This document shows, piece by piece, positions 2,957 to 46,054 of a stretch of DNA of 46,123 nt (position 1 is its first letter; each line of letters opens with the position of its first letter). Location of the stretch: NCBI GenBank assembly GCA_024400415.1, contig JAKSMS010000011.1, forward strand, positions 1 to 46,123, read 5' to 3'. The DNA comes from Bacteroidales bacterium (GTDB taxonomy: Bacteria; Bacteroidota; Bacteroidia; Bacteroidales; P3). The position numbers and the translations under genes are program-made. The notes below the pieces were generated by a model that saw nothing but the letters and a program-made list of their open reading frames with translations, did not search any database and was not told the origin of the DNA.

Positions 2957-3360
2957 GAATTGAAAGTTGAAAGTTGAAAGTTGAAAATTGAAAGTTGAAA
3001 GTTGAAAATAGTTGTGGGACAACGGACCCCGAACCTTGAACCTTGAACCTTGAACTTTGAACCAGCTTTGAACCTTGAACTTTGAACCTTGAACGATTCC
3101 AAACGAAGCGTCAGAAAACTCGTTTTCTAGACCGAAGTGCAGAATCGTCATGAGGCGAAGCCGAATAACCTTGAACTTTTGAACCTTGAACTATTGAACT
3201 ATTGAGCTGTTGAACCCTTGAACTTTTGAACCTTGAACTTTTGAACTATTGAACTATTGAACTGTTGAACCCTTGAACCTTTGAACCCTTGAACTTTGAA
3301 CTTTTGAACTTTTGAACTATTGAACCTTGAACTATTGAACTGTTGAACCCTTGAACCTTG
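2957..3360. repeat. Heptamer-type tandem repeat tract (TTGAAAG / TTGAACY)
   Basis: Gene-free DNA between the dcp-like gene and rnr. It opens with about seven near-identical 7-bp units TTGAAAG, then switches to units of 7-9 bp around TTGAAC(C/T)(T) that run with little interruption to ten bases before the rnr ATG. A 77-bp dispersed repeat interrupts it. The same units occur in inverted orientation (GTTCAAGG) at 38.2-39.3 kb. No spacers of constant length occur, so it is not a CRISPR array. No separate promoter for rnr is evident inside it. Confidence 0.85.
3094..3170 (-). repeat. Dispersed 77-bp repeat with palindromic core, copy 1
   Basis: On the minus strand this reads GGTTATTCGGCTTCGCCTCA, then a segment with the hairpin AGAAAACGAGTTTTCT, and ends in GGAATCG. 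Two further copies lie in the opposite orientation at 38938 and 39151. All three are embedded in TTGAAC/GTTCAA tracts, so the tract and the module appear to travel together. It has no coding capacity; a MITE-like or structured intergenic element is possible. Confidence 0.8.
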
Positions 3361-3369
3361 ATCCATACT

Positions 3370-30951: not shown

Positions 30952-31064
30952 CAAGTCAAAAGACCATTTGCATTTTTCAAAGAAAGCAAATCGTTTTTTA
31001 GTGTATAGATTTGAAAATAAAAAAATTGCGTAGTATTACCTCACATAGAACCAACGTCTACAAG

Positions 31065-32090: not shown

Positions 32091-32196
32091 TTTAGTATAA
32101 CATCAAAAAAATAAGAATTCAAAAAACGAAACTTTTTTCGAGAAATCTCGTAAAAGACAAGAAAACCTAATCTGATAATAAAAAAGACCCAATAAT

Positions 32197-33591
32197 ATGA
32201 AGAAGTTGTTATTCGTACTCGCAACAGTGACCCTTTTGTGGAGCTGCGGTTCTTCCGAGAAGGGAGAGCTCGTCGGCGTTGCAGACCGTCCATACTTTGA
32301 GGACATCGACCTCAAGGGCATGGTATTTATCAACCAAGGTAACTTCAGCATGGGTGCTGGTACTCAGAACACCACCTACGGCAAGCCAGTACAGCCACGC
32401 ACCATGCAGGTAGCCTCCTACTTTATGGATGAGACCGAGATTACCAACAACGAATACCGCCAGTTCGTAAACTGGGTCATCGACTCCATCGCCCGCCGCA
32501 TGCTCGGCGAGAACGGTATCGACGGATTCCTGATTGAAGAAGACCAGTATGGCGAGCCTATCGAACCAGCCATCCTCAATAAGAAGACAAAGATCAAGTG
32601 GGACGACCAAGAGTATCGCGAGGCCCTCAACGACCTCTACTACGCCGAAAAAGACCGCTTCTATCGTCGTCGCGCCATCGATGTTTCCAAGCTCAACTAT
32701 GAGTACTACTGGATCGACTACGGCACCGGTTCTAGCCAGCGCAACGAAGGCGCCAACTATGCCGCTATGAAAGAGGATAACAACAATATCAAGGGCGAGC
32801 ACAGAGGCACCATGTTCAACAGCCGTCCTAAGGGCTTGAACAACCGTTCCTCTTTCATCAAGAGAGAGCTCATCAACATCTATCCAGACACCCTCTGCTG
32901 GGTACATGACTATACTTATAGTATGAATGAGGACTATACCCGCAACTACTTCACCTCATCAGCATACGACAACTATCCAGTAGTAGGCATCACCTGGGTA
33001 CAGGCCAAGGCATTCTGCGTATGGCGTTCCAACTTCCTCAACCAATATCTTGAAGAGATGGACTACAGCCAGATGAACGACTTCCGCCTCCCAACAGAAG
33101 CCGAATGGGAATTCGCAGCCCGCGGCGGCATCTCAGGAGAAGTTTATCCATGGGGCGGTCCATACGTACGCAATCCTAACGGATGCTTCCTCGCCAACTA
33201 CGAGCCACTTAAGGGCGCTTACGATGATGATGGCGCAGTACGTGCACTCATGGTAGGCCACTACGCTCCAAACGACTACGGTCTGTACGATATGGCTGGC
33301 AACGTGTCCGAGTGGTGTCTCGACTCATACTCCGAGAGCACCTACAACATGGCCAACGCCCTCACCCCATACTACAACTACGACGCAGCCGACGACGATC
33401 CTATCGCCATGAAGCGCAAGGTGATCCGCGGCGGTTCTTGGAAAGACCAGAAGTACTTCATCCAGGTTCAGACCCGCACCTACGAGTTCCAGGATACCTC
33501 CAAGTGCTATATCGGCTTCCGTTGCGTACAGCCTTACTTAGGCCGTCAGAAGGGCGACAACATGAGAACCTCAAGCAATGTTGTCAAATAA
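32197..33591 (+). CDS. porK: T9SS ring lipoprotein PorK/GldK
   Basis: A 464-residue outer-membrane lipoprotein that forms the periplasmic ring with PorN. Lipobox LLWSC places the acylated Cys17. The rest is a formylglycine-generating-enzyme/sulfatase-modifying-factor fold (GMVFINQGNFSMG, DETEITNNEYRQFVNW, RLPTEAEWEFAARGG, GNVSEWCLDSY, RGGSWKD, GFRCVQ), used structurally in this family. The order porP-K-L-M-N matches known T9SS loci. Confidence 0.95.
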   Translation: MKKLLFVLATVTLLWSCGSSEKGELVGVADRPYFEDIDLKGMVFINQGNFSMGAGTQNTTYGKPVQPRTMQVASYFMDETEITNNEYRQFVNWVIDSIARRMLGENGIDGFLIEEDQYGEPIEPAILNKKTKIKWDDQEYREALNDLYYAEKDRFYRRRAIDVSKLNYEYYWIDYGTGSSQRNEGANYAAMKEDNNNIKGEHRGTMFNSRPKGLNNRSSFIKRELINIYPDTLCWVHDYTYSMNEDYTRNYFTSSAYDNYPVVGITWVQAKAFCVWRSNFLNQYLEEMDYSQMNDFRLPTEAEWEFAARGGISGEVYPWGGPYVRNPNGCFLANYEPLKGAYDDDGAVRALMVGHYAPNDYGLYDMAGNVSEWCLDSYSESTYNMANALTPYYNYDAADDDPIAMKRKVIRGGSWKDQKYFIQVQTRTYEFQDTSKCYIGFRCVQPYLGRQKGDNMRTSSNVVK

Positions 33592-33645
33592 TTAACACGA
33601 TTTTAATAATAACATCAATAAGTAACACTAAATTAAAAAGAAACT

Positions 33646-34572
33646 ATGAGCAAGTTAGATAATCTCGTTCGCAGTAAAGGTTACAAGAACTTTATGGCTA
33701 AACTTTATGGATGGGGCGCTGCAGTCGTAATCGTCGGCGCACTGTTCAAGATCAACCACTGGCCAGGCGGTACCATCATGCTGATTATCGGTATGGGTGT
33801 GGAAACCCTCATCTTCTTCCTGTCAGCATTCGAACCACCTCACGTAGAGTGGGACTGGAGTCTTGCTTACCCAGAACTCGCAGGAATGAAGGAAGATGCT
33901 GAAGGCATCGAAGGCGAAGAAGAGACCGAAGGCGTTTCTGTGAAGCCAGCACTCAGCAAAGATCCTCTGACTGCTCAGTTAGATAAGATGCTTGAAGATG
34001 CCAAGATCAGCCCAGACCTCATCGACCGTCTCGGCGCCGGCATGCAGAACCTGGCAGATTCAGCCAACAGCATGAACAACATGGCCACCGCTACCGCAGC
34101 TAGCGACAAGTTCGTTACCAATATGGACAACGCCGCCGACGCAGCTGGCGAGCTGGCAGGTGCTTATCGCAAGACCGCTGAATACATCAACAACGACACC
34201 CACATGTCATCCGAATACTCTGAGAGCCTCAAGGATGCTACCAGCGCAGTATCCAACCTGGCCAACATCTACAAAGAGACCGCTGCCACCCTCACTACTG
34301 GCGACGTATCCTATGTAGCAGAGATGAAGAAGATGTCAGCAAGCCTCGCCTCTATCAACGCCATGTACGAGATGCAGCTGCAGAACTCTACCGACCAGAT
34401 CAACTCCACCAAGGAAATCCAGGAGCGCATCAACAATATGGTTGGCAACTTCGCAGACTCAGCAGAAGGCGTGCTCAAATACAAAGAGCAGGTTGACGCT
34501 CTCACCCGCAAGGTATCCGAGCTCAACAATATCTACGGCAATATGCTTGCCGCTATGCAGACTAGACTCTAA
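33646..34572 (+). CDS. porL: T9SS motor protein PorL/GldL
   Basis: A 308-residue inner-membrane motor subunit. Two transmembrane helices (about 20-38 and 42-62) include Lys35 in GALFKINH and the intramembrane Glu53 in GMGVETLIFF, the type of charged pair known to matter for proton-driven motion in GldL. A long helical cytoplasmic domain follows (about 100-308). It works with PorM to energise export. It lies 54 bp after porK and 76 bp before porM. Confidence 0.95.
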   Translation: MSKLDNLVRSKGYKNFMAKLYGWGAAVVIVGALFKINHWPGGTIMLIIGMGVETLIFFLSAFEPPHVEWDWSLAYPELAGMKEDAEGIEGEEETEGVSVKPALSKDPLTAQLDKMLEDAKISPDLIDRLGAGMQNLADSANSMNNMATATAASDKFVTNMDNAADAAGELAGAYRKTAEYINNDTHMSSEYSESLKDATSAVSNLANIYKETAATLTTGDVSYVAEMKKMSASLASINAMYEMQLQNSTDQINSTKEIQERINNMVGNFADSAEGVLKYKEQVDALTRKVSELNNIYGNMLAAMQTRL

Positions 34573-34648
34573 TCTAATACTTGCCATATAGGCCAAAGAA
34601 CAACGTAATAACCAAATTCAATTAACCAAAAAAGCAAAGACTTAGACT

Positions 34649-36328
34649 ATGGGTGCTAGTAACTGTCCGGAAACCCCGAGACAAAAAATGATTCAGATGA
34701 TGTACCTCGTGTACACCGCCATGTTGGCTTTGAACGTTTCGGCCGCAGTTGTGAGCAGTTTCGTTACCGTTGGTGACGCCATGAACATGTCGAACGAAAA
34801 CATTCAGGCCAAACTGGATGACACTTATACAAGATTCGAAGAGCTTCTCCAGAACAACCGCGAGAAGACTCAGGAACACTATGACAAGGCAAAGCAGGTT
34901 AAGGCTCTGACCCTCAACCTCACTCAATACCTCGACTCTATCGAGTGCGACTTCCTCTGCGAAGTACAGACCTCTGCCACCGTTACCAAGTATGCCGACG
35001 ACGGCAGCAAGGAGTACGAGCGCGACATCCAGCTCGTTGACGCTAGCGGCAACCACCTTCTCGACAGCGCCCGCTCGGCACTGAAGCTCGGCGGACTCTC
35101 CATCATCAAGAAGAAGGACGACAACCACGCCGGTACAGCCTACTTCTATAAGGAAGAAGGCGGCGGACGCAGCGAAGAGATCCGCGGCAAGATCCGTGAA
35201 TACAAGACCAACCTGAAGAAAATCCTCGGCGAAGACTCCAACAGCCTCCAGATCGCCCTCGATGTAGACGCCAAAGGCTACAACGAAGAGGCCCACGACC
35301 TCGAAGACTGGGAGAAGCACAACTTCGCAGAGCAGATTCAGATTGCCTACTTCGTAACCCTCTCTCGACTCAAAGCCGAGGCCATGAACGCCGAATTCGA
35401 CGCCGTGAACATCCTCTACAAGAAGGTCGGCAAGGGCGACTTCAAGTTCGACCAGATTGCCATCATCGGCCGTCCAAAGTCCACCTATATCATCCAGGGC
35501 GGCGTGTATGAAACCGATATCAACGTGGCTGCATACGACTCCAAGGCCCAGTTTGAGGCAACCATCAACGGCCAGAAGATCGTCAGCAACGACAGCGGTT
35601 CCGTCCACTACCGCACCCCGGCAGGTGCTACCGGACAGAAGACCGTACAGGGTACCGTCTACGTAAAGACCGACGAAGGTGTTAAGGAATATCCATTCAA
35701 GGACAGCTACTTTGTAGCAGAGCCAGTGGCCATCGTATCCCTTACCAACATGAACGTGGTATACGCCGGTATCGACAACCCCGTATCCATCTCCGTTCCT
35801 GGCATTGATACCCGCAACGTTACCCCATCCGTACAGGAGTCTGGCGCATCCATCACCAAGGATCCTAACGGAAAGGCAGGCGACTATATCATCAAGACCA
35901 CCCAGACTGCAGGCAAGATCCACGTGGTAACCCACGCCAAAGCCGACGGCAAGACCAACCAGCAGATGGGCGTACAGGAATTCCGTATCAAGAAGGTGCC
36001 AGATCCAGTCATCGTTCTTGGCAAGTACAAGAATGGCCAGACCATCCCAATGAGCGAGCTCCGCGCCATGAACGGCTTCCGCGCCTCTATGGGTGACGAC
36101 TTCTCCTTCAAGATGACCGCTCCAAGAGTGACCGCCTTCGACTTCAACCTCAGCCGCTCCGGCAAGGAAGATATCTCAGGCAAGGGCAATTCAAGCTGGA
36201 ATCCAGAGATGAAGTCCATGCTCGAAAAGGCTAAGCCCGGCCAGAAAATCTACCTCGACAACATCAAGATCGTGATGGCCGACGGTACCACTCGTACAAC
36301 AAGTGCCACCTTCCGTATTGGAAAATAA
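34649..36328 (+). CDS. porM: T9SS motor/spanning protein PorM/GldM
   Basis: A 559-residue protein with one N-terminal transmembrane helix (about 22-42, YLVYTAMLALNVSAAVV) preceded by the conserved PRQKMIQMM, and a large periplasmic part of stacked domains. It dimerises, links PorL in the inner membrane to the PorK/N ring, and transmits motor movement. Full length and canonical position. Confidence 0.95.
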   Translation: MGASNCPETPRQKMIQMMYLVYTAMLALNVSAAVVSSFVTVGDAMNMSNENIQAKLDDTYTRFEELLQNNREKTQEHYDKAKQVKALTLNLTQYLDSIECDFLCEVQTSATVTKYADDGSKEYERDIQLVDASGNHLLDSARSALKLGGLSIIKKKDDNHAGTAYFYKEEGGGRSEEIRGKIREYKTNLKKILGEDSNSLQIALDVDAKGYNEEAHDLEDWEKHNFAEQIQIAYFVTLSRLKAEAMNAEFDAVNILYKKVGKGDFKFDQIAIIGRPKSTYIIQGGVYETDINVAAYDSKAQFEATINGQKIVSNDSGSVHYRTPAGATGQKTVQGTVYVKTDEGVKEYPFKDSYFVAEPVAIVSLTNMNVVYAGIDNPVSISVPGIDTRNVTPSVQESGASITKDPNGKAGDYIIKTTQTAGKIHVVTHAKADGKTNQQMGVQEFRIKKVPDPVIVLGKYKNGQTIPMSELRAMNGFRASMGDDFSFKMTAPRVTAFDFNLSRSGKEDISGKGNSSWNPEMKSMLEKAKPGQKIYLDNIKIVMADGTTRTTSATFRIGK

Positions 36329-36356
36329 AACTTGAAATAATAAAATACGATATACT

Positions 36357-37247
36357 ATGAAAAAGCTTCTGATTTCCCTAAGTTTCGCATTGTTTGCAGC
36401 CATGTTTATGCCATCCAATGCTCAGAGCATCCTCGATGCCGAAGAGGGCAGTCTCGGACACTACTATCAGAGAAATCAAATCGCCCAAGGCAAGAAAGCC
36501 ATGCCATACGAATATGTTCGTCCTAGCGACGTCGTTTGGGAGCACTGCATCTGGCGTACCATCGATTTCAAGGAGAAGTTCAACCAGTTCTTCTACTATC
36601 CAACCGATCCTACTGAGAACACTCAGGACCGCGTCAATCTAGCCAACGCCATCTATGCTGCTGTATCCAACGGCGATATCGAAGTCTTTGAAGACGACGA
36701 GATGCTGGTGCCACTGGAGTGGAGCGTGCTCGAAGGCAGAATCAACAAGATCGACACCGTCACCATCCCCGGCGACGTTGACGAGTGGGGCGACCAGATC
36801 TCTCCAGACCGCGATTCTGTAATCATGACCGCCTTCGATTCCAAGGACTATGAGGTGATCAAGCTCAAAGAATTCTGGTATATCGACAAAGAAGACACCC
36901 GCCAGAAGGTACGCATCATAGGTCTCTCTCTCGTGCAGAACTCCTGCAAGGAGCGCGACGGCGAGATGGAGTGCATCCAGATCGACAAATTCTGGGTTCC
37001 TATGAACGATATGCGCGTTCGCAACATCCTCGTCAAGATCAACGCCTACGACGAGAACAACAACTGCCTCGAGAAGAGCTACGACGAGATCTTCATCTCT
37101 AGATACTTCGACAGCTTCATCACTCGCGAGACCAACCGCGCAAACCGTTCCATCAGCGAGTACCTCACCGGACTTGAGGCCATCATCGAGTCTCAGAATA
37201 TCGAAGAGAACGTATTCGATATCGAGTCCGATATGTGGGAATACTAA
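36357..37247 (+). CDS. porN: T9SS ring protein PorN/GldN
   Basis: A 296-residue periplasmic partner of PorK. It has a signal peptide (LLISLSFALFAAMFMPSNAQ), the family block VWEHCIWRTIDFKEKFNQFFYYP (about 60-82) and the ending RSISEYLTGLEAIIE ... FDIESDMWEY. It lies 28 bp after porM and is followed by a hairpin (37255-37271) and an intrinsic terminator. Confidence 0.94.
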   Translation: MKKLLISLSFALFAAMFMPSNAQSILDAEEGSLGHYYQRNQIAQGKKAMPYEYVRPSDVVWEHCIWRTIDFKEKFNQFFYYPTDPTENTQDRVNLANAIYAAVSNGDIEVFEDDEMLVPLEWSVLEGRINKIDTVTIPGDVDEWGDQISPDRDSVIMTAFDSKDYEVIKLKEFWYIDKEDTRQKVRIIGLSLVQNSCKERDGEMECIQIDKFWVPMNDMRVRNILVKINAYDENNNCLEKSYDEIFISRYFDSFITRETNRANRSISEYLTGLEAIIESQNIEENVFDIESDMWEY

Positions 37248-37281
37248 GACCTTCGTAGGGTTCTACCCTACCCGATAAAAG

Positions 37282-37323
37282 AAAAGAGTTAAGTGAGAGA
37301 CCATCAAGCTTAACTCTTTTTTT
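37282..37323 (+). terminator. Intrinsic terminator between the two porN genes
   Basis: AAAAGAGTTAAG pairs with CTTAACTCTTTT across a 15-nt loop, ending in TTTTTTT. A smaller GTAGGG/CCCTAC hairpin lies just upstream. Confidence 0.85.
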
Positions 37324-37351
37324 GCTGTAACAGTCCAAGAACATCAACCTC

Positions 37352-38230
37352 ATGAAATCCAACCATGCCATACGCCTGCTCATCGCCATGCTGATAGCAT
37401 CAGCAGCGCATAGTTACGGCCAGAGCATCGGCGACATCCCTCTAGGGCAGTTCTACGACCACAGCATGAAAGAGGGCAAACAGCCTATCCCCCACCTCTA
37501 CCTGCGAGAGTCCGATGTGGTCTGGGAATCCATCCTGTGGCGCACCATCGACCTCCACGAACGCTTCAACCAGTTCTTCTACTACCCCACCGAACCCGAA
37601 GGCAGCCAGGGCCTGCTCAACTTCACCAACCTCATCTGGAATGCCGCCAAAAACTTCCAGATACCCATGTATGAGGACGACGAGTTCAAGATTCCCATCG
37701 ACCCCGACCACTACTTCACCCGCTACCTCACCGGCGACACCGTGCAGCTCGAGATCTACGACGACGAAGAAGGCGAAGAGTTCCACTACGAGACCGTGGT
37801 AGTACCCAAGATCTTCTACTCCGAAGAGATCACCCGCTACTACCTCAAAGAGGCCTGCTATATCGAGAAGCAGACCACCGGCCAGAACTTCCGCATCATC
37901 GGACTGGCACTCATCAAAGACAACTACAAGACCATCGACGGCGAAGAAGAGTATATGGGCAGCTTCCCCCTCTTCTGGATCCCCTTCGAATCCCTCTCCG
38001 TACGCCGACTTCTAGTGCGCAACGAAGCCTATTTCGAAGACAATATCGCCCACCTTCCCAGCTGGGACGAGATCTTCCTTACACGCACCTACTCCAGCTT
38101 TATCTCACGCGAGAGCAACCGCTTCAACCGATCCATCAGCGACTACCTCACCGGAGAGGACGCCATCATGGAAGCCGACCGCATCGAAGAACGCCTCCTC
38201 GACATCGAACAAGACATGTGGGAGTACTGA
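37352..38230 (+). CDS. Second PorN/GldN paralogue
   Basis: A 292-residue homologue of the preceding gene with the same layout: signal peptide (LLIAMLIASAAHSYGQ), VWESILWRTIDLHERFNQFFYYP, an acidic middle (DDEEGEEFHYE) and the ending RFNRSISDYLTGEDAIME ... LLDIEQDMWEY. It lies behind the terminator with no clear promoter of its own, so it would be made by read-through or at a low level. A tandem gldN-like pair is known in Flavobacterium johnsoniae (gldN/gldO), where the second copy is partly redundant. Whether it forms alternative rings is unknown. Confidence 0.92.
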   Translation: MKSNHAIRLLIAMLIASAAHSYGQSIGDIPLGQFYDHSMKEGKQPIPHLYLRESDVVWESILWRTIDLHERFNQFFYYPTEPEGSQGLLNFTNLIWNAAKNFQIPMYEDDEFKIPIDPDHYFTRYLTGDTVQLEIYDDEEGEEFHYETVVVPKIFYSEEITRYYLKEACYIEKQTTGQNFRIIGLALIKDNYKTIDGEEEYMGSFPLFWIPFESLSVRRLLVRNEAYFEDNIAHLPSWDEIFLTRTYSSFISRESNRFNRSISDYLTGEDAIMEADRIEERLLDIEQDMWEY

Positions 38231-38937
38231 CAGAAGATGGATCAAGGGTTCAAAGTTCAAGGTTCAAGAGTTCAAGGTTCAAGGATCAAAGTTCAAAGTT
38301 CCACCATACACCTTACGCCGCACACATCAACACATGTGGCAAAGCAACTAACACATCAACACGCCATTTACACCGAATCGACCGAATAAACCGAATCTTT
38401 ACTAAGGATTTTTTTTTTAGATTTTTTGTCAGATATTAAAAATCCCACTTAAAATCTTTGTGGATTCTCTGGTGTTAGAAATCTGACTTAAAATACCTGA
38501 AGTAAAATCCTTTTTTGGAGAATCGCCCCTTGGGACGAAAAATCTACTGAAAATCAAACAGAAAATCTCATCCACTCGCCAGCGGCACGCGAGCGCAGCG
38601 ACAGCGTTTTCGCGCCCTTCGCCCAGCTTCAACCCGAGCCCAACTTTTAACCTTTCCCTCTTCGCGGGATTGGCAATGAGCGATTAGTAGTTGGCTATTG
38701 GCCGTTAGCAAATAGCAAATAGTAAATAGTAAATATCCAATCGCCAAAAGCCAATCGCCAATCGCCAATCTCCAGCCGCGGGGTAACTGGACCCATCCGG
38801 TGGGTTCTCTCCGGGGCTCTTTACCGGAGTTGACCGCCAGATATGCCGGAGAAAGTCCCCAGATAGGACGGAGAAGCGCTAGAGCCGCAGGGCGGCTGGT
38901 TCAAAGTTCAAGGTTCAATGGTTCAAAGGTGGTTCAA

Positions 38938-39080
38938 GGTTACTCGGCTTCGCCTCATGACGATTTTGCACTCCGGTCTAGAAAACGAGTTTTCTGACGT
39001 CTTCGGCATTTTCTTTTGAGTGAGGGACTCAAAAGGCCTCAGTTACAAAAGTCCACAGGACTTTCTCATGTTTAGAATCG
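38938..39080 (+). repeat. Dispersed repeat copy 2 (with about 70-bp insertion)
   Basis: Starts GGTTACTCGGCTTCGCCTCA and holds the AGAAAACGAGTTTTCT hairpin. It carries an extra segment after CTGACG, containing GAGTGAGGGACTC and AAGTCCACAGGACTT hairpins, before the shared end TTTAGAATCG. Confidence 0.8.
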
Positions 39081-39150
39081 TTCAAAGTTCAAGGTTCAAA
39101 GCCGCAAGGCGGCTGGCTCAAAGTTCAAGGTTCAAGGTTCAAGGTTCAAA

Positions 39151-39226
39151 GTTACTCGGCTTCGCCTCATGACGATTTTGCGCTCCGGTCTAGAAAACGA
39201 GTTTTCTGACTCTCCGTTTAGAATCG
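39151..39226 (+). repeat. Dispersed repeat copy 3
   Basis: A short form matching copy 1 in length, again flanked by GTTCAAGG units on both sides. Confidence 0.8.
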
Positions 39227-39432
39227 TTCAAAGTTCAAGGATCAAAGCCGCAAGGCGGTGCGGCTGGCTCAAAGTTCAAGGTTCAAGGATCAAAGTTCAA
39301 AGTTCCACCATACAACTTACGCCACACACATCAAAACATCAACACCTGTGGCAAAGCCACTAACACACCATTTCTGGTGCAATTTTTGCCATAAATTTGA
39401 TTATCAGACCGTTGGTTGTGATTAACGAAAAG

Positions 39433-39487
39433 TTGACGAAAAGTTAACGAAAAAAATAACCTAAATTTTTCGTTAACTTTTCGTTAA
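39433..39487. repeat. Inverted repeat of 11-bp units (ACGAAAAGTTA)
   Basis: Arms TTGACGAAAAGTTAACGAAA... (39433-39454) and TTTTTCGTTAACTTTTCGTT... (39466-39487) pair over 22 bp with one G-T. The preceding bases extend the direct 11-bp repetition. Same design as the elements at 19243 and 39764, but a different unit sequence. Confidence 0.85.
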
Positions 39488-39763
39488 TGAAGGCTATCTT
39501 TTTGCGTAAGTGTCTCTACTTCTGCGACTTAGTATTTCTTGACGCAAAAATAGGTTCAAATAGTTATCAAGAGTGCGATTTTGGACACATCAACACATGT
39601 GGCAAAGCCACCAACACATTAAGCCATGTGGCGCAGCCACGAACCCTGGCGCAGCCACGAACCCTGGCGCAGCCACTAACACACCATTTTTGGTGTAATT
39701 TTTGCCATAAATTTGGTTAATTTGGTAAAGTGATTTGATATTCAGCAAGTTGAGTATTTATCT

Positions 39764-39846
39764 CGCCAAGTTGCCGCCAAAAAACTCCCCAAATTTGGCG
39801 GTAACTTGGCGGTAACTTGGCGAAAAATGGCGGTAACTTGGCGGTA
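39764..39846. repeat. Inverted and direct repeat of 11-bp units (GGCGGTAACTT)
   Basis: CGCCAAGTTGCCGCCAAA (39764-39781) pairs with TTTGGCGGTAACTTGGCG (39794-39811) with one mismatch. Direct GGCGGTAACTT units then continue to 39846, eight bases short of the stop codon of the winged-helix remnant. Confidence 0.85.
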
Positions 39847-39853
39847 AAAAAGC

Positions 39854-40030
39854 TTAATCTTTATTGTAATAGCCTCGTTTTGAAGATTTTAAGATTCCAA
39901 GATTGATGTACATCGCCAAAAATCGCTCAAGTGTACGAGTTGACAGTCCCAACTGATGAGCGATCTGTATAGCCTCCTTCTTGATAAATGTCTTGGGTAG
40001 GGCCTCCCATACAAGTAATATCACTGCCAA
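39854..40030 (-). pseudogene. 3' remnant of a winged-helix gene (primase/DUF3987-like C-terminus)
   Basis: The frame encodes about 58 residues, ...EALPKTFIKKEAIQIAHQLG, then LSTRTLERFLAMYINLGILK and a terminal GYYNKD. This helix-turn-helix ending resembles the C-terminus of DUF3987/VirE-associated proteins of Bacteroidetes mobile DNA. That assignment is from memory of the family and only moderate. A TAA lies at 40031-40033 and no proper start exists, so only the last part of a gene survives. Its 5' break coincides with the end of the last immunity gene, as expected if the cassette block replaced the upstream part. Confidence 0.5.
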
Positions 40031-40509
40031 TTAATTCTAAAAGGCGCTAAGCCATCAACACAGCATCCGCGAGGTTGTAAGACTGTGTCATCAACAATAA
40101 CATCCAAAAAGAATGCAGTATCTGAGAATATGATACTTTCTATATCAATGCATTTTAACGAATCTTGATTAAAAAATGAACCACCTAAATTTTGGTTATC
40201 AAAAAACAATATTTTGAAGTCTCCAATAGTTGCATACCCTTTAAAACCCTCTTTGGGGAATAGTTCATTAGGTTTTCCAATCAATATCAGCGTATCATCC
40301 CATACGCAAAATTCCTCGTTATCTTTATGAAAAGATATCGAATAAAAAGAAGCGGTATCGGGATGTTCTTCGTTTCCAATAAACCAAGAAAAAGCCTCCT
40401 CAAGGCATGGCGATAATGTCGGTTGGATCTGAATCGGATTCTCGAGCATACCACAATGACACGAAATCAGTAGCAAAAACATGCAGAATATACCAAAATG
40501 TAATTTCAT
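40021..40509 (-). CDS. Exported lipoprotein, putative immunity protein of cassette D
   Basis: 162 residues, family not recognised. A signal peptide ends in LLLISC (Cys17 possibly lipidated). The mature part is acidic with aromatic beta-rich segments (CVWDDTLILIG, YATIGDFKILFF) and a Cys pair near the end (RGCC). It begins two bases after the stop of the JAB-like toxin gene, so the two are coupled. Position, size and export argue for an immunity protein neutralising that toxin outside the cytoplasm; this is inference. Lower GC than the T9SS genes. Confidence 0.6.
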   Translation of the reverse strand: MKLHFGIFCMFLLLISCHCGMLENPIQIQPTLSPCLEEAFSWFIGNEEHPDTASFYSISFHKDNEEFCVWDDTLILIGKPNELFPKEGFKGYATIGDFKILFFDNQNLGGSFFNQDSLKCIDIESIIFSDTAFFLDVIVDDTVLQPRGCCVDGLAPFRINWQ

Positions 40510-40511
40510 TT

Positions 40512-41417
40512 TTATCTTGTATTAAAGGTGCCAAAGAAAAAATCAGCTGCAGAACGAATATTTCTAATAAAAGCGGGCCTAAATGTTCCTACCGACCAAA
40601 GCTGATTTGTTTTGGGGAAATATGTGTAATAATAAGTGTTTTTCAGACTTGTATAACGTTTTTTGTACGCATCTCCAGCTAGGCCTTTTTGCCCCCAATA
40701 CCCCATGCTGCTTTTTTGACTTTCAACCGTCTCTGGGTTAGGGTATCCACTGGCCGTTGGATGGGAATGTATAAGCGTAACAGTGGTTTTATCATTTTGC
40801 CTACCATTTGATAAATCATAGGAACTAGGAGATTTCCTTTGATTATGCAGTGTTCCTAAAGAGTAATGCCCATCTGTGTACCAATCCATTCTCCACTCCA
40901 CATTCGTGTTGTCAGCCATGGATTTAAATACGGTCGCATAGACTGACTGCATATTAGAGTTCCCATAAGAAGCAGAAATGCTATTATCCCCCTCATTGCT
41001 CAAGTCGTACAAGACTTGATGATACTTAGCGCCTTTATATTTGACAACCTGCCCATTTGAGTATATGAGAGTTTGTCGTTTAAAACCACCTTCTTCGCTA
41101 GTCTTTTTTATGTGCCCGTCATCAGAAACCTCCCAAACGTCATTTCCGTCTGGGTCCACCAGTTTCACAGGATTGCCGGCACAATAGTTGTAGGGACTCA
41201 TCGACGGATACTTATCCATCATCGGATCCACGCTCAGCCAGCCGGTTGTCCGATCTGCATCGTAAAATCTTGCGCCAAAACAACTTAGACCGGTTTCCTC
41301 GTCACGCTGCTCACTATATTTGATAATATTCAAAGGTGTTCGCCACCCCTTTCGGGGGTCAATGCCGGTAAAAGCTTGGATGTAAAAAGATGACAAGTTA
41401 TGCCAGACAGGAATCAT
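40512..41417 (-). CDS. Cassette D: orphan Rhs tip with JAB/JAMM-like toxin domain
   Basis: 301 residues. Residues 34-91 are a truncated Rhs core (RDEETGLSCFGARFYDAD, WLSVDPMMDKYPSMSPYNYC, ending LVDPDG), where toxin tips join in polymorphic Rhs proteins. The C-terminal domain has Glu174 (VEW), His217 and His219 in HSHP, and a possible Asp249 (AGD). The Glu-to-His spacing of 43 equals that of cassette C, so both probably share a JAMM metalloprotease fold (Toxin-JAB1 type). No YD-repeat shell and no signal peptide. The first 33 residues differ from the other cassettes, and no promoter box is seen, so it may be transcribed from cassette C. Confidence 0.75.
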   Translation of the reverse strand: MIPVWHNLSSFYIQAFTGIDPRKGWRTPLNIIKYSEQRDEETGLSCFGARFYDADRTTGWLSVDPMMDKYPSMSPYNYCAGNPVKLVDPDGNDVWEVSDDGHIKKTSEEGGFKRQTLIYSNGQVVKYKGAKYHQVLYDLSNEGDNSISASYGNSNMQSVYATVFKSMADNTNVEWRMDWYTDGHYSLGTLHNQRKSPSSYDLSNGRQNDKTTVTLIHSHPTASGYPNPETVESQKSSMGYWGQKGLAGDAYKKRYTSLKNTYYYTYFPKTNQLWSVGTFRPAFIRNIRSAADFFFGTFNTR

Positions 41418-41463
41418 AATATGGTGTGTCTACTAGGACATTGAGCAATAAAAAACAGCATGC

Positions 41464-41991
41464 TTAGAATACTACAAAATCATTGGGACCACAATAAGCC
41501 GCTGCTGCCGTGATCTCAAAATGACCACCAGTATGCCGCACGATAAACTCCGCATGAGGAATATCAAAAATATTCAGATTTTCGTGTTCTTTGTTTTCCG
41601 TGTAGTTGCCGACCTTCAGTTGAAACAATTCCTTTGTTGGCTCCAGAAATCGTATCTGAGGCTCACTTCCGCAATAAACATAGACATAAACTATATGTGA
41701 TTTATATTTTGCCACACTAATTCCATCAAAGTAGTCCGATGGTATATGGAGTGGGTGTAATAATCGGCGTATACACATGCGATTCATATTTTGGTAATAT
41801 ATAACCATAACAGCATCAGTATCATTATTTTCGATATCCATTTCTTTTTCTAGTGAGAACAGTGAGTCTATTGTCTGAGAAAAAAAAGGGTCGTTGAATC
41901 GATGAAGTGGAACCGCATAGATTGTATCTTTGTATGCCATGCAGTTAATGGATATTAACAATAGCGGAATAAGAATAAAATACTTTTTCAT
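41464..41991 (-). CDS. Exported protein, putative immunity protein of cassette C
   Basis: 175 residues, not recognised. A signal peptide (FILIPLLLISINCMAYK; the Cys could be a lipidation site) is followed by an acidic mature domain (MDIENNDTDAVMVIYYQ, YKSHIVYVYVYCG) and a hydrophobic C-terminus. It starts four bases after the stop of the JAB-like toxin gene, which supports a toxin/immunity pair. AT-rich compared with the core genome. Confidence 0.6.
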   Translation of the reverse strand: MKKYFILIPLLLISINCMAYKDTIYAVPLHRFNDPFFSQTIDSLFSLEKEMDIENNDTDAVMVIYYQNMNRMCIRRLLHPLHIPSDYFDGISVAKYKSHIVYVYVYCGSEPQIRFLEPTKELFQLKVGNYTENKEHENLNIFDIPHAEFIVRHTGGHFEITAAAAYCGPNDFVVF

Positions 41992-41995
41992 GTTG

Positions 41996-42877
41996 TCATC
42001 TTTTGGGTTGCCAACCGATACTCAACCAATTATAGAAAGAAGCTGGCTGTTGGGTGCCTGATTTCAAATTGAGAACCCTTTCATCATAGAAATAATTGCC
42101 GTCATACCGTGAATATCCTGTCAAAGGAGTATAAGTGTAAAAGATGGTGGTAGGATGATTCTTTGCTACCTCATAATCTCCGTGATCATGTTCGTCCAGC
42201 AGGAACAAGGATGGAGAAGGATCTCCTGATGGATGATTATGAACATAAATCTCAATAGAATACCCATTCCTATGCAAAAGGTTAAATATACCATTTGAAC
42301 GTTCTTTTTGAGTGGTGCCGACAATGTTGTCACTCATATTAGTATTTGAGATGGTAGCATGACTCCATTCAAGTGGCATCCCATTGTCATCTGTGTAGCA
42401 ATCAGCTAAAAATTCAAAAAGATTTTCTGCTTCTGGTAATCCACGGACCCGGAATGTTGTATTTTCCGTCCCATCAAGATTCAATTCAGTTATGGAGCCA
42501 TACTCATATTTATCACTGCTGCAGATTATGTCGCCAGCCGCCCCTAGTATCTTTACCTGATCGTACGACTTGTCCGTCTTGTGACTGACAATTTTACCGC
42601 TGTTGTCTAGTTCCCATACATCCATTCCATCTGGATCCACCAACTTCACTGGATTACCTGCACAATAGCTGTAAGGTGACATCGATGGGTACTTGTCCGC
42701 CATCGGGTCCACGCTCAGCCAGTTTGTTGTCAGATCTGCGTCGTAGTGCCTTGCACCAAAATAACTTAGACCCGTTTCTGAATCTTTCTCTTTCCCGGCG
42801 AAAGCGAAACCGACAAAGGTGCCGCTAAGCGTGGCAGTCGAGGTGGCTTGGCCATATATGAAGTCAGAACAATTCAC
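41996..42877 (-). CDS. Cassette C: orphan Rhs tip with JAB/JAMM-like toxin domain
   Basis: 293 residues from a GTG start. Residues 28-84 are the Rhs core stub (KEKDSETGLSYFGARHYDAD ... LVDPDG). The toxin domain carries a good JAMM set: Glu170 in LEW, His213 and His215 in HNHPSGDPSPS, and Asp234 in DHGD. JAMM enzymes are zinc peptidases; JAB-type tips are known in polymorphic toxins. The GTG is chosen because the frame closes upstream and a promoter box (TACTTTG) ends four bases before it, leaving almost no leader. No secretion signal. Confidence 0.8.
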   Translation of the reverse strand: MNCSDFIYGQATSTATLSGTFVGFAFAGKEKDSETGLSYFGARHYDADLTTNWLSVDPMADKYPSMSPYSYCAGNPVKLVDPDGMDVWELDNSGKIVSHKTDKSYDQVKILGAAGDIICSSDKYEYGSITELNLDGTENTTFRVRGLPEAENLFEFLADCYTDDNGMPLEWSHATISNTNMSDNIVGTTQKERSNGIFNLLHRNGYSIEIYVHNHPSGDPSPSLFLLDEHDHGDYEVAKNHPTTIFYTYTPLTGYSRYDGNYFYDERVLNLKSGTQQPASFYNWLSIGWQPKR

Positions 42878-42881
42878 GGTG

Positions 42882-42888
42882 CAAAGTA
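42882..42888 (-). promoter_or_regulatory. Promoter box abutting the cassette C start
   Basis: TACTTTG followed by CACC and then the GTG start, one base short of TAnnTTTG. The expected transcription start falls at or next to the start codon. Confidence 0.45.
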
Positions 42889-42904
42889 CGAATCTTTATT
42901 GCGA

Positions 42905-43378
42905 CTATCTGGAATTTGCCCCCTTATATTCAGCATTAGAGCCATCATTAGTCCCATACAACAATTTACCATTTTCGTCATTTTGTCTAGGATAAAAATA
43001 TAATCCTATTTCATCTTCAAGGAATAAAGTGTCTGATCTGTATTTAATACGCCCATGATAATACAATAGGTCGTCAACCGTCATTATGATTGAATCTTTT
43101 ATTATTTCGTACTTGCACCACAATAACGGATCAACCCACAATACAGAATCAGTCGTTGTAAAACAAAGAACACTGTTACCAGTTTCAGAATCAGTCCCCC
43201 AGCAACCTTGCAATAATTCAAAAGAGACAGAATCGGTCAATAGGCAAGAGCCAATCGAATACTCCTTTGTATGCACTTGGACGCCAGCGCAACCACTACA
43301 TAGTTCCGCATTCAACATATTCATGTCTTGATGAATTAATATTGGGAACAATACAATAGTTAATATTAACTTCTTCAT
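42905..43378 (-). CDS. Exported protein, putative immunity protein of cassette B
   Basis: 157 residues from the ATG that overlaps the toxin stop as ATGA; a start 30 bases upstream is in frame but unneeded. A signal peptide (LILTIVLFPILIHQDMNMLNA) is followed by a mature domain opening with Cys residues (ELCSGCAG) and then beta-rich repeats of the type FELLQGCWGTDSETGNSVLCF, resembling small lipocalin-like domains. The family is not recognised. Pairing with the M15-like toxin of cassette B rests on the overlap and on export. Confidence 0.6.
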   Translation of the reverse strand: MKKLILTIVLFPILIHQDMNMLNAELCSGCAGVQVHTKEYSIGSCLLTDSVSFELLQGCWGTDSETGNSVLCFTTTDSVLWVDPLLWCKYEIIKDSIIMTVDDLLYYHGRIKYRSDTLFLEDEIGLYFYPRQNDENGKLLYGTNDGSNAEYKGANSR

Positions 43379-44289
43379 TTTGGTTGGATTATTTGAATAT
43401 GATGACATTTTTCACCTTTGTCGTTAAAAGGACATAAATACTTTGAAACCCGATTGTCATTACATACATTGTCGTAAAATAGCCTTGCATTATTGGGAAT
43501 AACTATATCGCAAACATTTTCGAAGACACCATCTGAACAATGTTTGGAAACATTAGTTGGACCCTGTTTGTATATTTCTTTTATCATTGCATCCAAATTC
43601 TCAGCATGACTTTTACTTATGTCATATACTTTATTTACTGCTCTTCCTGCTGATGCATAATTAATCATGTTACCTTGCTCTATGTTGGATAACATGGCTG
43701 CAGCTTGCCCTTCCGGAGTCCGGAACGTGCTGGTAATAGTAGCTTGTTCCACTCCACTTGCTAACATATTTTCAAACAAAACCGTCATTGAGTAGTGTGA
43801 AATTTTTTTCATAGAGTTATCTTTGTAATTGATTGTAGCGGTTCTCATTGATTCCCAATCCATACATGTTAGGTTTCCTAATTCATCACCGTGGAATGCG
43901 TATCCCATATCATAATCATGTTGTCCACTCCAACCAACAGTCTTTCCAATATATGTGGCTCCTGGTGGTAAATTCTTCTCGGTGATATTTTTTTGCCAAA
44001 CGGGCTCAGTTGCACCTTGGGGAATATACCAGTCTCTCCCATCCGGATCCACCAGCCTCACAGGATTGCCTGCGCAATAGTTGTACGGCGACATCCCTGG
44101 GTACTTATCCGCCATCGGGTCGACGCTCAACCACCCAGTTATCAGATCTGCGTCGTAGTACCTTGCGCCAAAATAGGATAAACCTGTTTCTTCGTCGCGA
44201 ACTTTCCCGGCGAAAGTATTACCGACAAAGGTGCCGCCATACGTGGCATTCGAAGTAGATGGGCGATATGTTGATGACAATCGATTCAT
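43375..44289 (-). CDS. Cassette B: orphan Rhs tip with M15 (LAS)-like peptidase domain
   Basis: 304 residues. Core stub at 28-84 (VRDEETGLSYFGARYYDAD ... LVDPDG), then a C-terminal domain with STFRTPEGQAAAM (187-199), SKHCSD with His250, Asp261 in CDI, and a terminal HHIQI (His296/297). The order S-x-H, D, HxI is that of LAS-type D-Ala-D-Ala peptidases, but the His-Asp gap (11) is longer than the usual 7, so the call is moderate. If right, it cuts peptidoglycan peptides in the target periplasm. No signal peptide. Its stop overlaps the next gene. Confidence 0.65.
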   Translation of the reverse strand: MNRLSSTYRPSTSNATYGGTFVGNTFAGKVRDEETGLSYFGARYYDADLITGWLSVDPMADKYPGMSPYNYCAGNPVRLVDPDGRDWYIPQGATEPVWQKNITEKNLPPGATYIGKTVGWSGQHDYDMGYAFHGDELGNLTCMDWESMRTATINYKDNSMKKISHYSMTVLFENMLASGVEQATITSTFRTPEGQAAAMLSNIEQGNMINYASAGRAVNKVYDISKSHAENLDAMIKEIYKQGPTNVSKHCSDGVFENVCDIVIPNNARLFYDNVCNDNRVSKYLCPFNDKGEKCHHIQIIQPK

Positions 44290-44293
44290 GGCG

Positions 44294-44302
44294 CAATTTT
44301 TA
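44294..44302 (-). promoter_or_regulatory. Degenerate promoter box abutting the cassette B start
   Basis: TAAAAATTG followed by CGCC and then ATG. A poor match to TAnnTTTG, but the same 4-nt distance to the start codon as cassette C. Confidence 0.25.
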
Positions 44303-44371
44303 CTATTTTTTTGATATTTGACACCTGCCCGAAATTTTCAGACCATAATATTGCTTGCGAAACTTCAACAA

Positions 44372-45070
44372 TTAATCTCTCGTATGAAACCAAACCAAGG
44401 GACAACCATTTTCATTAATATATCGAATCCAGCAACGAATTCTGTGGCACTCGAACACTTCTTCGCCTTCATCATGAGGAATAGAGACATCAACTTGCAT
44501 CCATCCATCATTATTAGAGTTCCCTGTAGGGATGATATCGCAATCATATTTCTTTATCACCTCATTGCGATAGTCATACCACAATTCCTTCATTATGGGG
44601 ATTGTCATGTCTAATACTTCACCTTTTGGAGATTTGAAGAATTGGATTTCGGAAATGCCATTATGGTTGTTAAGGGGAAATACATTCTTTGACTGTGGAA
44701 TCAAGTCTGACCAAAGACAACACCCAATGATGTTGTCATTTTTTTTAATCCATCCATATTGAATTACTTCATTTTCTTCACTAATAATAATCTTGATTGC
44801 ATTTCCTTGGATAGAAGTAATACAAAACCCAAATGTTTCATCTGCAAATTCAATGAGGGAAAGATTGTCATCTAGATTGATGTTTGACGAAGTAATTGTC
44901 AAAATTTTCTGTGTAAAACAGGAATCATAGATTTGGAGTTCATATGCCGTGTCTCTCATTTCGGGATAATGACAATTGAAATAGGCAACACCTATGCCAC
45001 TCCAAGGAGATATAGCGTTACAATGCAATGAAAAGAAAAACAAAAATAAGAACAAACCGTATTTTTTCAT
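44372..45070 (-). CDS. Exported protein, putative immunity protein of cassette A
   Basis: 232 residues, not recognised. A signal peptide (YGLFLFLFFFSLHCNA) precedes an acidic mature protein with beta-rich segments (GVAYFNCHYPEMRDTAYEL, IIISEENEVIQYGWI) and a C-terminal block rich in Cys, Trp and His (FECHRIRCWIRYI). It starts 12 bp after the stop of the LAS-peptidase toxin gene. Immunity is inferred from position and export; it is larger than the other three candidates. Confidence 0.6.
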   Translation of the reverse strand: MKKYGLFLFLFFFSLHCNAISPWSGIGVAYFNCHYPEMRDTAYELQIYDSCFTQKILTITSSNINLDDNLSLIEFADETFGFCITSIQGNAIKIIISEENEVIQYGWIKKNDNIIGCCLWSDLIPQSKNVFPLNNHNGISEIQFFKSPKGEVLDMTIPIMKELWYDYRNEVIKKYDCDIIPTGNSNNDGWMQVDVSIPHDEGEEVFECHRIRCWIRYINENGCPLVWFHTRD

Positions 45071-45082
45071 GGCAAATCATCT

Positions 45083-46009
45083 TTATTTATTTACATGAAT
45101 ATGATTGTTATGGATTATAGGATCTATTTCTTTCGACATGACTCTTCTCCCACTGATGCTATATAATCCTGAATCATGAAGGAATGATAGAAAAACATTA
45201 TTTATATTCACTTGATTTTGTGAAAGATTTAGGTAGTTCGAAGAACCTTTCCCATCCTCGGTGATATATCTAAAATCTATGCAGCGCCCGTTGCGATGAC
45301 TTTTGTGTCCCAAATTTGTTTTTCCGTCATAAGCTGAAACATCATTAACAACTACGGTTACACCAGCCTGATTAACTGCATAATTAAAGGCTGCGGCAAC
45401 ATCTGGTGCTGTCCAATCATCCCCATGTTTCCCCTTGGAAGATGAGGTTCCATCTTTCAACGTATAGCTGTATGAGTCTTCACTTGCGGTATTATTCACA
45501 ATGTTTGAATTCCCCATTCTTGTCAATTGAATAAGACCAAATTCGTTAGTTTGCCCCAAATACTGAGTCTCGGAATCATTTATTAAATTGTCATACTTGC
45601 TGGGTACAAGGCCCGCTGCTCCTGTTATTTCAGGTGATGTGCTATTACAAACATGTTTATTCCAAGCCGTTCTTGTTGTTTGGTATATCTTTTGGTCGTT
45701 TTTCCTATCCGTTCCTAAATAGCCACCTGTCTCATCATAAAAATCGCCAAATTCCATTCCTTCCGGGTCCACCAGCTTCACAGGATTGCTAGCGCAATAG
45801 TCATACGGACTCATGCTGGGATACTTGTCAGCCATTGGGTCAACACTCAGCCAACCAGTCAGCAATTCTGAGTCGTAATACCTTGCGCCAAAATAACTTA
45901 GACCCGTTTCGAAGTCTTTCTCTTTCCCGGAGAAAGTAAAACAGGCATCGTGAGCCATGTGGGGTATCACGGCTGAGAGTGGGGCAGATGATGCGAATCC
46001 GGCTTCCAT
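45083..46009 (-). CDS. Cassette A: orphan Rhs tip with LAS-type zinc peptidase domain
   Basis: 308 residues from the ATG at 46009. An in-frame ATG at 46054 lies upstream of the promoter box and is rejected. The Rhs stub spans 26-84 (SGKEKDFETGLSYFGARYYD ... LVDPEG). The toxin domain ends with a clear LAS/M15-type zinc site: His238 and Asp245 in SHRNGRCIDFR (the canonical seven-residue gap) and His303/His305 in NNHIHV. Such enzymes cleave peptidoglycan cross-links or stem peptides. A middle segment (about 95-185) is unassigned. First gene of the leftward array, followed by its exported partner. Confidence 0.8.
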   Translation of the reverse strand: MEAGFASSAPLSAVIPHMAHDACFTFSGKEKDFETGLSYFGARYYDSELLTGWLSVDPMADKYPSMSPYDYCASNPVKLVDPEGMEFGDFYDETGGYLGTDRKNDQKIYQTTRTAWNKHVCNSTSPEITGAAGLVPSKYDNLINDSETQYLGQTNEFGLIQLTRMGNSNIVNNTASEDSYSYTLKDGTSSSKGKHGDDWTAPDVAAAFNYAVNQAGVTVVVNDVSAYDGKTNLGHKSHRNGRCIDFRYITEDGKGSSNYLNLSQNQVNINNVFLSFLHDSGLYSISGRRVMSKEIDPIIHNNHIHVNK

Positions 46010-46014
46010 GAGTG

Positions 46015-46022
46015 CAAAAGTA
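46015..46022 (-). promoter_or_regulatory. Promoter box abutting the cassette A start
   Basis: TACTTTTG, five bases before the ATG, preceded by the same A-run and GTG as the acyltransferase promoter. The predicted transcript would be leaderless or nearly so. Confidence 0.5.
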
Positions 46023-46054
46023 CACTTTTTTTTGATTTTTTGCCCATGTTTCAT

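What the first reader, a model, noticed from the sequence alone, without database searches (positions are those of the whole stretch)
40021..46009. Array of four orphan Rhs-tip toxin/immunity cassettes without a full-length Rhs gene
Seen: four minus-strand units, each a short Rhs core stub (ending DPDG or DPEG) fused to a different C-terminal domain, each followed by a small gene with gaps of 12, -4, 4 and 2 bp. Known: polymorphic Rhs/CDI loci can keep displaced orphan tips downstream of a complete gene. Inference: here the reservoir is unusually regular, each unit has its own start, and no shell or export signal remains within 6 kb. It could be a tip library for recombination, or a set of independently expressed small toxins.
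Basis: partly seen in the sequence, partly recalled or inferred. Interest (0 to 1): 0.8.

Follow-up and report, generated by a model that had tools for sequence, protein, structure and literature searches.

The report
Shell-less Rhs toxin genes in arrays
A gut Bacteroidales genome carries a row of small toxin genes, each paired with its own exported protector protein, that have lost the large Rhs delivery shell yet look translated and preserved by selection; related gut bacteria carry up to 29 such copies with no full-length gene found.

Summary
In detail: four minus-strand units, each a short Rhs core stub plus a different tip, followed by a small gene at +12, -4, +4 and +2 bp. The window is a whole contig ending 114 bases 5' of the array, so an adjacent full-length gene cannot be excluded locally. 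None was found in the rest of the assembly (81% complete), which holds a second array of four units. In relatives I collected 181 such mini-units. Their partner genes encode exported proteins (135 of 154; background 124 of 307 ORFs); the toxins do not (3 of 181). Unlike described orphan modules, they have open leaders with start codons (157 of 158); the core evolves under purifying selection even in genomes where I found no full-length Rhs (dN/dS 0.04-0.18), and so do tips (0.08-0.65). Recognisable tips are mostly metallopeptidases or cell-wall hydrolases, fitting immunity in the periplasm; most tips stay unassigned. Best reading: self-standing, envelope-targeting mini-Rhs toxin/immunity genes, a new variant of orphan Rhs modules. 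The export route is unknown (no signal peptide; no T6SS or sheath gene found).

The parts
45083..46009 (-). Unit 1 mini-Rhs toxin (308 aa): 24-aa leader, core ending DPEG, 224-aa tip with SHxxGxxxD...HxH, M15/M74-like
   Evidence: TIGR03696 E 5e-16 (scanned as the longer frame 45083-46054); PF03411 Peptidase_M74 E 0.065 only; tip found in 1 of 120 genus genomes, its own
46015..46022 (-). Bacteroidota -7-like box TACTTTTG, 5 nt before unit 1's ATG
   Evidence: motif statistics; that this is the Bacteroidota promoter motif is recalled, not from a call
44372..45070 (-). Partner of unit 1 (232 aa), signal-peptide-like start
   Evidence: gap 12; hydrophobicity rule SP; no Pfam family
43375..44289 (-). 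Unit 2 mini-Rhs toxin (304 aa), core ending DPDG, 220-aa tip with HC...DI...HxI
   Evidence: TIGR03696 E 2.3e-16; tip relatives on a Prevotella Rhs-like protein and a Rahnella gene between two vgrG genes
42905..43378 (-). Partner of unit 2, signal-peptide-like, overlaps unit 2 by 4 nt
   Evidence: resembles by eye the partner of the Prevotella relative
41996..42877 (-). Unit 3 mini-Rhs toxin (293 aa), JAB tip (HNHPSGDPSPS), GTG start
   Evidence: TIGR03696 E 1.9e-17; PF15659 Toxin-JAB1 E 8.9e-9, above cut-off
42882..42888 (-). Near match to the -7 box (TACTTTG, one base short), 4 nt before unit 3's GTG
   Evidence: sequence
41464..41991 (-). Partner of unit 3 (175 aa), signal-peptide-like
   Evidence: gap 4
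40512..41417 (-). Unit 4 mini-Rhs toxin (301 aa), JAB tip (HSHP)
   Evidence: TIGR03696 E 8.3e-13; PF15659 E 5.9e-9; tip in 8 of 120 genus genomes, 10 matches, none on a frame over 360 aa, one of them cut by a contig end
40021..40509 (-). Partner of unit 4 (162 aa), lipoprotein-like (LLLISC)
   Evidence: gap 2; similar by eye to the genes beside unit-4-type tips in G087, G095, G141 and G045, three of which are called exported

Best explanation
These are self-standing mini-Rhs toxin genes. Each unit is a leader (about 10-90 aa, not a signal peptide) + the last ~60 residues of the Rhs core up to DPxG + a ~205-aa variable toxin tip, followed by its cognate immunity gene. Shown by computation: the units are intact, have a start and an open frame, core and tip evolve under purifying selection, partners pair with tip type and are predicted to be exported. 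Inferred: the tips attack the cell envelope (peptidoglycan or envelope proteins), the immunity protein blocks its toxin in the periplasm, and the toxin leaves the producer by an unknown route (lysis, vesicles or an unrecognised exporter), while also serving as donor for recombination where a full-length gene exists.
For: Frame 0 before the core is open for 20 or more codons in 46 of 49 independent leader clusters, against 23 and 12 in the other two frames; a start codon (ATG, GTG or TTG) lies in it in 157 of 158 minis, ATG in 130 (in leaders this long a start is likely by chance too, so openness is the stronger fact). Core dN/dS 0.18, 0.09, 0.09, 0.04 and 0.16 within G000, G001, G013, G126 and G087; tip dN/dS 0.08-0.65 in the 21 estimable of 24 pairs. 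Partners exported in 135 of 154; in the first 87 units with a matching rule 70 of 75, background 124 of 307; toxins 3 of 181. Partner homology in 54 of 153 same-tip pairs against 4 of 11,022 different-tip pairs. Pfam hits at E <= 0.01 among 107 tips include M91 (7), M23 (4), Toxin-JAB1 (3), M15_4 (1), YkuD (1), Hydrolase_2 (1); HExxH in 23 of 103 tip clusters, shuffled mean 0.56. In nine genomes the 144 cores all lie in frames of 510 aa or shorter.
Against: No expression or toxicity data. The toxins lack a recognised export signal, and no T6SS TssC (0 of 120) or sheath gene (0 of 12) was found, so how they would reach a target is unknown. Most tips stay unassigned: the listed Pfam matches (25 families, the list's cap) add up to 40 for 107 tips, and a few point elsewhere (PF09000 Cytotoxic 1, a nuclease family by recall; Ntox44 2). 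The -7 motif lies upstream of 48 of 158 units (shuffles: mean 9.4, maximum 17), but per leader cluster the excess is within 50 shuffles (7.9 against mean 3.8, maximum 9.9). Leaders evolve nearly freely (0.46-1.40 in 8 estimable of 10 clusters, ungapped, rough). Exported partners are not special to minis: 12 of 17 long genes have one too. Some minis keep the end of a full-length gene, so at least these derive from displaced tips.
Confidence: 0.55

Rival explanations
1. Ordinary orphan reservoir: displaced tips kept as a recombination library and immunity bank for a full-length Rhs gene; only the immunity proteins work day to day.
For: In G045 and G024 minis follow a full-length gene; 11 of 23 long-gene tips have a mini relative at E <= 1e-4, best 60% over 204 aa and 63% over 111 aa; six long genes whose start was read begin with signal peptides while minis do not; known orphan arrays behave so (PMC3150448, PMC3967940, passages read). 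In G000 both arrays start at contig ends, where a full-length gene could be hidden.
Against: Described orphans generally lack translation initiation signals; these have open leaders with starts. The core protein is under purifying selection in genomes where no full-length gene was found. Unit 4's tip was on no frame over 360 aa in 120 genus genomes.
Confidence: 0.3
2. Cytoplasmic toxin-antitoxin modules, as reported for Salmonella orphan Rhs (PMC7043789).
For: Short units with own starts, no export signal, immunity downstream.
Against: The partner is predicted to be exported in 135 of 154 units, so toxin and antitoxin would sit in different compartments; recognisable tips are largely metallopeptidases or cell-wall hydrolases.
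Confidence: 0.05
3. Decaying graveyard without present function.
For: 19 of 221 non-edge core frames have a short tip or a broken core; unit D on C8 has lost part of its core; stub remnants lie on C8.
Against: 181 of 221 non-edge frames are intact minis, tip length 5-95% range 151-226 aa; purifying selection.
Confidence: 0.07

Closest known systems
Orphan rhs-CT/rhsI and cdiA-CT/cdiI modules (PMC3150448, PMC3967940)
   Same: Truncated core plus variable toxin plus cognate immunity gene, in arrays, no export signal
   Different: Those are said to generally lack translation initiation signals and to lie behind a main gene; these have open leaders with starts and selected cores, occur where no shell gene was found, and their immunity proteins are exported
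Tox-JAB-1/Imm65 (Zhang et al. 2012, PMC3482391)
   Same: Units 3 and 4 match PF15659, and C8 unit C falls in unit 4's tip cluster; Bacteroidota, Rhs-linked; lipoprotein-like partner for unit 4
   Different: The paper calls Imm65 the only lipoprotein immunity of its collection (it also notes secreted or membrane immunity for an L,D-peptidase toxin) and suggests JAB toxins may be nucleases; here exported partners are the rule across tip types, which argues for an envelope target. No Pfam family matched our partners
Salmonella orphan Rhs type II toxin-antitoxin (PMC7043789)
   Same: Short toxin made from a promoter close to the core
   Different: There toxin and antitoxin act inside the cell; here the partner is predicted to be outside the cytoplasm
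TANFOR polymorphic toxins of Bacteroidetes (PMC7073777)
   Same: Bacteroidota polymorphic toxins with downstream immunity
   Different: Large proteins with a TANFOR domain, most with a signal peptide; TANFOR was not searched for here

Membership tests
Full-length Rhs/YD polymorphic toxin | Rhs-associated core before the tip | tested here: met
   TIGR03696 above cut-off in all four units
Full-length Rhs/YD polymorphic toxin | YD-repeat shell | tested here: not met
   Units are 293-308 aa; PF05593 0 in G000; 700-aa shell query 0 in G000
Full-length Rhs/YD polymorphic toxin | N-terminal delivery signal | tested here: not met
   No signal peptide by rule in any of the 8 units of G000
Orphan rhs-CT/rhsI module | Linked cognate immunity gene | tested here: met
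   Gaps 12, -4, 4, 2; same-tip partner homology 54/153 against 4/11,022; immunity function itself untested
Orphan rhs-CT/rhsI module | Lacks translation initiation signals (usual, not universal) | tested here: not met
   Start codon in 157 of 158; open leaders in 46 of 49 clusters
Orphan rhs-CT/rhsI module | Lies behind a full-length rhs gene | tested here: inconclusive
   None found in G000, but the contig ends 114 bases upstream
Tox-JAB-1/Imm65 | JAB domain tip of the PF15659 family | tested here: met
   Units 3 and 4, E 8.9e-9 and 5.9e-9; C8 unit C is in unit 4's tip cluster
Tox-JAB-1/Imm65 | Lipoprotein Imm65 partner | tested here: inconclusive
   Unit 4's partner is lipoprotein-like, unit 3's signal-peptide-like, but no Pfam family matched either
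M15/M74 (LAS) peptidases | SxHxxGxxxD and C-terminal HxH/HxE zinc motif (recalled) and a family match | tested here: inconclusive
   Unit 1 has SHRNGRCID...HIH but only M74 E 0.065; C8 unit D matches M15_4 E 6.6e-12; unit 2's family conserves H, D, H with other spacing and has no Pfam peptidase hit
Type II toxin-antitoxin module | Toxin and antitoxin in the same compartment | tested here: not met
   By prediction only: toxins unsignalled, partners exported
Type VI or contractile-injection effector | Delivery machine in the genome | tested here: not met
   PF05943 0 of 120, PF04984 0 of 12; G000 is only 81% complete

The most novel reading that the evidence does not exclude
Mini-Rhs is a distinct class of polymorphic toxin: the protein has dispensed with the Rhs shell altogether, is made in the cytoplasm from its own (in this lineage probably leaderless) transcript, and is released by a route other than Sec, T6SS or contractile injection to attack neighbours' envelopes, with some gut Bacteroidales carrying nearly 30 pairs as their only Rhs-type arsenal.
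Probability: 0.3. Interest if true: 0.85.

Novelty: new variant of a known kind. Interest (0 to 1): 0.6.

Why it matters
Orphan toxin tips are usually seen as silent spare parts of a full-length gene. Genomes that keep many intact, selected tip genes without a detectable shell make that view testable, raise the question how a 300-residue toxin without a signal leaves the cell, and give a large catalogue of candidate envelope-attacking domains with matched exported protectors in uncultured gut bacteria. Exported partners also bear on the open question whether JAB toxins cut DNA or envelope substrates.

Tried and rejected
Rejected: plain graveyard (181 of 221 non-edge frames intact); cytoplasmic toxin-antitoxin (compartments differ); anti-phage system (PADLOC no hit at E <= 0.01 for any of the 8 window proteins); phage origin (no phage match for unit 4 or for unit 2's tip; units 1 and 3 not tried); functional link with the adjacent T9SS operon (in eight relatives gldM lies on another contig than, or more than 40 kb from, the listed core copies). 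PF05593 absence alone was rejected as proof of no full-length gene, because G066 has a 2127-aa gene that neither PF05593 nor the 700-aa query found; frame lengths were therefore listed for nine genomes. An early idea that exported partners mark only minis was dropped: 12 of 17 long genes have one within 220 nt. M15-type motifs by regular expression gave 0 of 181 (unit 1 is not in that set), so unit 1's motif was read by eye. Plasmid search with unit 1's tip: no match. PDB search: none for unit 1, two chance-level for unit 2.

Limits: loci were picked by me from the matches listed (the list was cut), with an eye to frames near 300 aa and a few long ones, so mini-to-long proportions are not estimates. 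Signal peptides were called by a home-made hydrophobicity rule, not SignalP. Units of one genome are not independent. dN/dS is pairwise Nei-Gojobori; the core pairs were aligned without gaps. Rows dropped before counts: 50 edge frames, unit 1 of the window among them, and C8 unit D for its short tip or core, so the 181 minis hold units 2-4 and C8 units A-C; 23 minis outside the 158 for lack of upstream sequence or an incomplete core start; 10 minis without room for a partner and 17 with none within 60 nt; 3 non-estimable pairs of 24. In one search G034 gave no pair, G057 one and G087 three.
Full report
What is there. The window is the whole of contig C3 (46,123 bases) of an unnamed 1.84-Mb, 79-contig genome, 81% complete. 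At 40021-46009, minus strand, lie four units of 293-308 aa, each with a Rhs-associated core (TIGR03696) ending DPEG or DPDG and a different tip of 209-224 aa, each followed at +12, -4, +4 and +2 bp by a small gene. The contig stops 114 bases upstream of unit 1, so absence of a shell on that side is not evidence. A second array lies on contig C8 (L010): units A (243-1121), B (1868-2779), C (3005-3886) and D (4610-5089, core truncated), plus stub remnants. No YD repeat (PF05593) and no match to a 700-aa shell segment of a same-genus Rhs gene was found in this genome.

Where it occurs. TIGR03696 is found in 94 of 149 sampled genomes of the family. A capped scan of named genomes with the core alignment brought 74 loci, mostly Bacteroidales of horse and ruminant gut by their titles; the best two are Paludibacteraceae from horse faeces, and Candidatus Colimorpha is among them. 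The two horse-faeces loci share this genome's leader type, so the host is probably a gut relative of these (inference).

The mini-unit as a form. In the loci I found 271 distinct core-bearing frames: 179 mini-units, 2 with longer tips, 12 medium, 11 short-tipped, 8 broken, 9 long, 50 cut by an edge. Tip length is narrow (5-95%: 151-226 aa). Some minis retain the last stretch of a full-length gene; others carry short leaders unlike the long genes, shared within a genome or clade. Core DNA is more alike within genomes (0.84, 300 pairs) than between (0.60, 4,851 pairs).

Are they translated and selected? In 158 minis with enough upstream sequence, a start codon lies in the open frame before the core in 157; with leaders this long many starts would be there by chance, so the openness itself is the stronger fact. 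Taking one per leader cluster (49), frame 0 is open for 20 or more codons in 46, against 23 and 12 in the other frames. Core dN/dS within genomes is 0.18 (G000, 21 pairs), 0.09 (G001, 36), 0.09 (G013, 136), 0.04 (G126, 21), 0.16 (G087, 3 pairs). Tip pairs give 0.08-0.65 in the 21 estimable of 24. Leaders evolve much more freely. A -7-like box TAnnTTTG lies upstream in 48 of 158 units, against 9.4 (maximum 17) in shuffles and 5 of 138 upstream of partners; across leader clusters the excess is not beyond the shuffles. In the lineage of the window it often sits 4-5 nt before the start codon, which suggests leaderless transcripts (inference).

Genomes with minis only. In nine genomes the 144 core copies all lie in frames of 510 aa or shorter; seven of these genomes are at least 90% complete, with up to 29 copies. 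Eight of the nine, G000 included, have no match to the shell query; G087 has two fragments of 84 and about 45 aa. For PF05593, G000, G001, G087 and G126 have none and G013 is not among the listed positives; G034, G057, G095 and G105 have one match each (E 0.003, 1.9e-6, 0.005, 8e-4), G057's in a 257-aa frame. A divergent shell broken over contigs is not excluded; G066 shows that both probes can miss one.

Partners are exported. Of 171 minis with room, 154 have a partner within 60 nt; 135 of these have a signal-peptide- or lipoprotein-like start, and several of the other 19 look by eye like membrane or signal proteins that my rule missed. In the first set of 87, 70 of 75 partners of at least 80 aa pass the rule used for the background, where 124 of 307 other ORFs do. 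The toxins have such a start in 3 of 181. Partners of the same tip type are homologous in 54 of 153 pairs, of different tips in 4 of 11,022. Long Rhs genes also mostly have exported partners (12 of 17), and the six whose start was read begin with signal peptides.

What the tips do. Units 3 and 4 are Toxin-JAB1. Unit 1 shows the zinc motif of D-Ala-D-Ala/murein peptidases (motif recalled) with a weak M74 match; C8 unit D matches M15_4. Unit 2's tip recurs at 40% and 32% identity at the end of a Prevotella Rhs-like protein with a lipoprotein-like partner and in a Rahnella gene between two vgrG genes with a signal-bearing partner; H, C, D and H residues are conserved. Among 107 tips Pfam found M91 (7), M23 (4), JAB1 (3), Ntox44 (2), M15_4, YkuD, Hydrolase_2, several other metallopeptidase families and a few others, one of them (PF09000) a nuclease family by recall; the 25 listed families add up to 40 matches, so most tips had none listed. 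HExxH occurs in 23 of 103 tip clusters, 0.56 expected. Together with exported partners this points to an envelope target for many tips, and against the nuclease idea for JAB toxins in PMC3482391 (passages read).

Delivery. TssC (PF05943) was found in 0 of 120 genus genomes, a sheath (PF04984) in 0 of 12; GldM of the type IX system is present in 9 of 9, but minis have no signal peptide for that route. How the toxin leaves the cell is the main gap.

Reservoir or working genes? Orphan cdiA-CT and rhs-CT modules are described as generally lacking translation initiation signals and, in Salmonella, as fusing to a main gene by recombination (PMC3150448, PMC3967940; passages). Salmonella orphan Rhs toxins are also reported as expressed from promoters near the core and acting as toxin-antitoxin modules (PMC7043789; passages). 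The present units differ by open leaders with starts, selected cores, occurrence without a detected shell, and exported partners. Exchange with long genes does occur: 11 of 23 long tips have a mini relative, up to 60% over 204 aa. Unit 4's tip, in 8 of 120 genus genomes, was on no frame over 360 aa, and a similar lipoprotein-like gene travels with it.

In print. Searches listed no title or abstract describing shell-less Rhs arrays in Bacteroidales; the library holds open-licence papers only, I read passages of five papers, and annotated 'RHS repeat-associated core' proteins of this size may well be noted elsewhere. The concept of standalone toxin cassettes is known (PMC3482391).

Verdict. Observation confirmed; a new variant of orphan Rhs modules; working small toxins more likely than a silent library, with delivery unexplained.

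Noticed in passing
window 31011-38230: A type IX secretion operon (gldM by TIGR03517; gldK, gldL and two gldN-like genes by my own reading) lies 1.8 kb from the array; in eight relatives gldM is not next to the listed core copies.
   Followed up: partly
window 38239-39847: Spacer rich in short tandem repeats (7-nt TCAAGGT type, 18-nt, 29-nt and 11-nt units) between the secretion operon and the array.
   Followed up: no
window 39854-40030: 58-aa ORF right after the last partner gene, resembling the end of a winged-helix protein (weak Pfam hits below cut-off).
   Followed up: no
L010:1741-1855 and L010:5548-5590: Short Rhs core remnants without a tip on contig C8, marks of past rearrangement.
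   Followed up: partly
L010:1-150 and L112: Ends of a membrane-helix partner protein (RWKDEP...TIPYW) shared by this genome and G087: a possible membrane-type immunity family.
   Followed up: no
L189:2222-3657: Rahnella plasmid gene pair between two vgrG genes: relative of unit 2's tip with a signal-bearing partner, a candidate T6SS effector pair without a Pfam family.
   Followed up: partly
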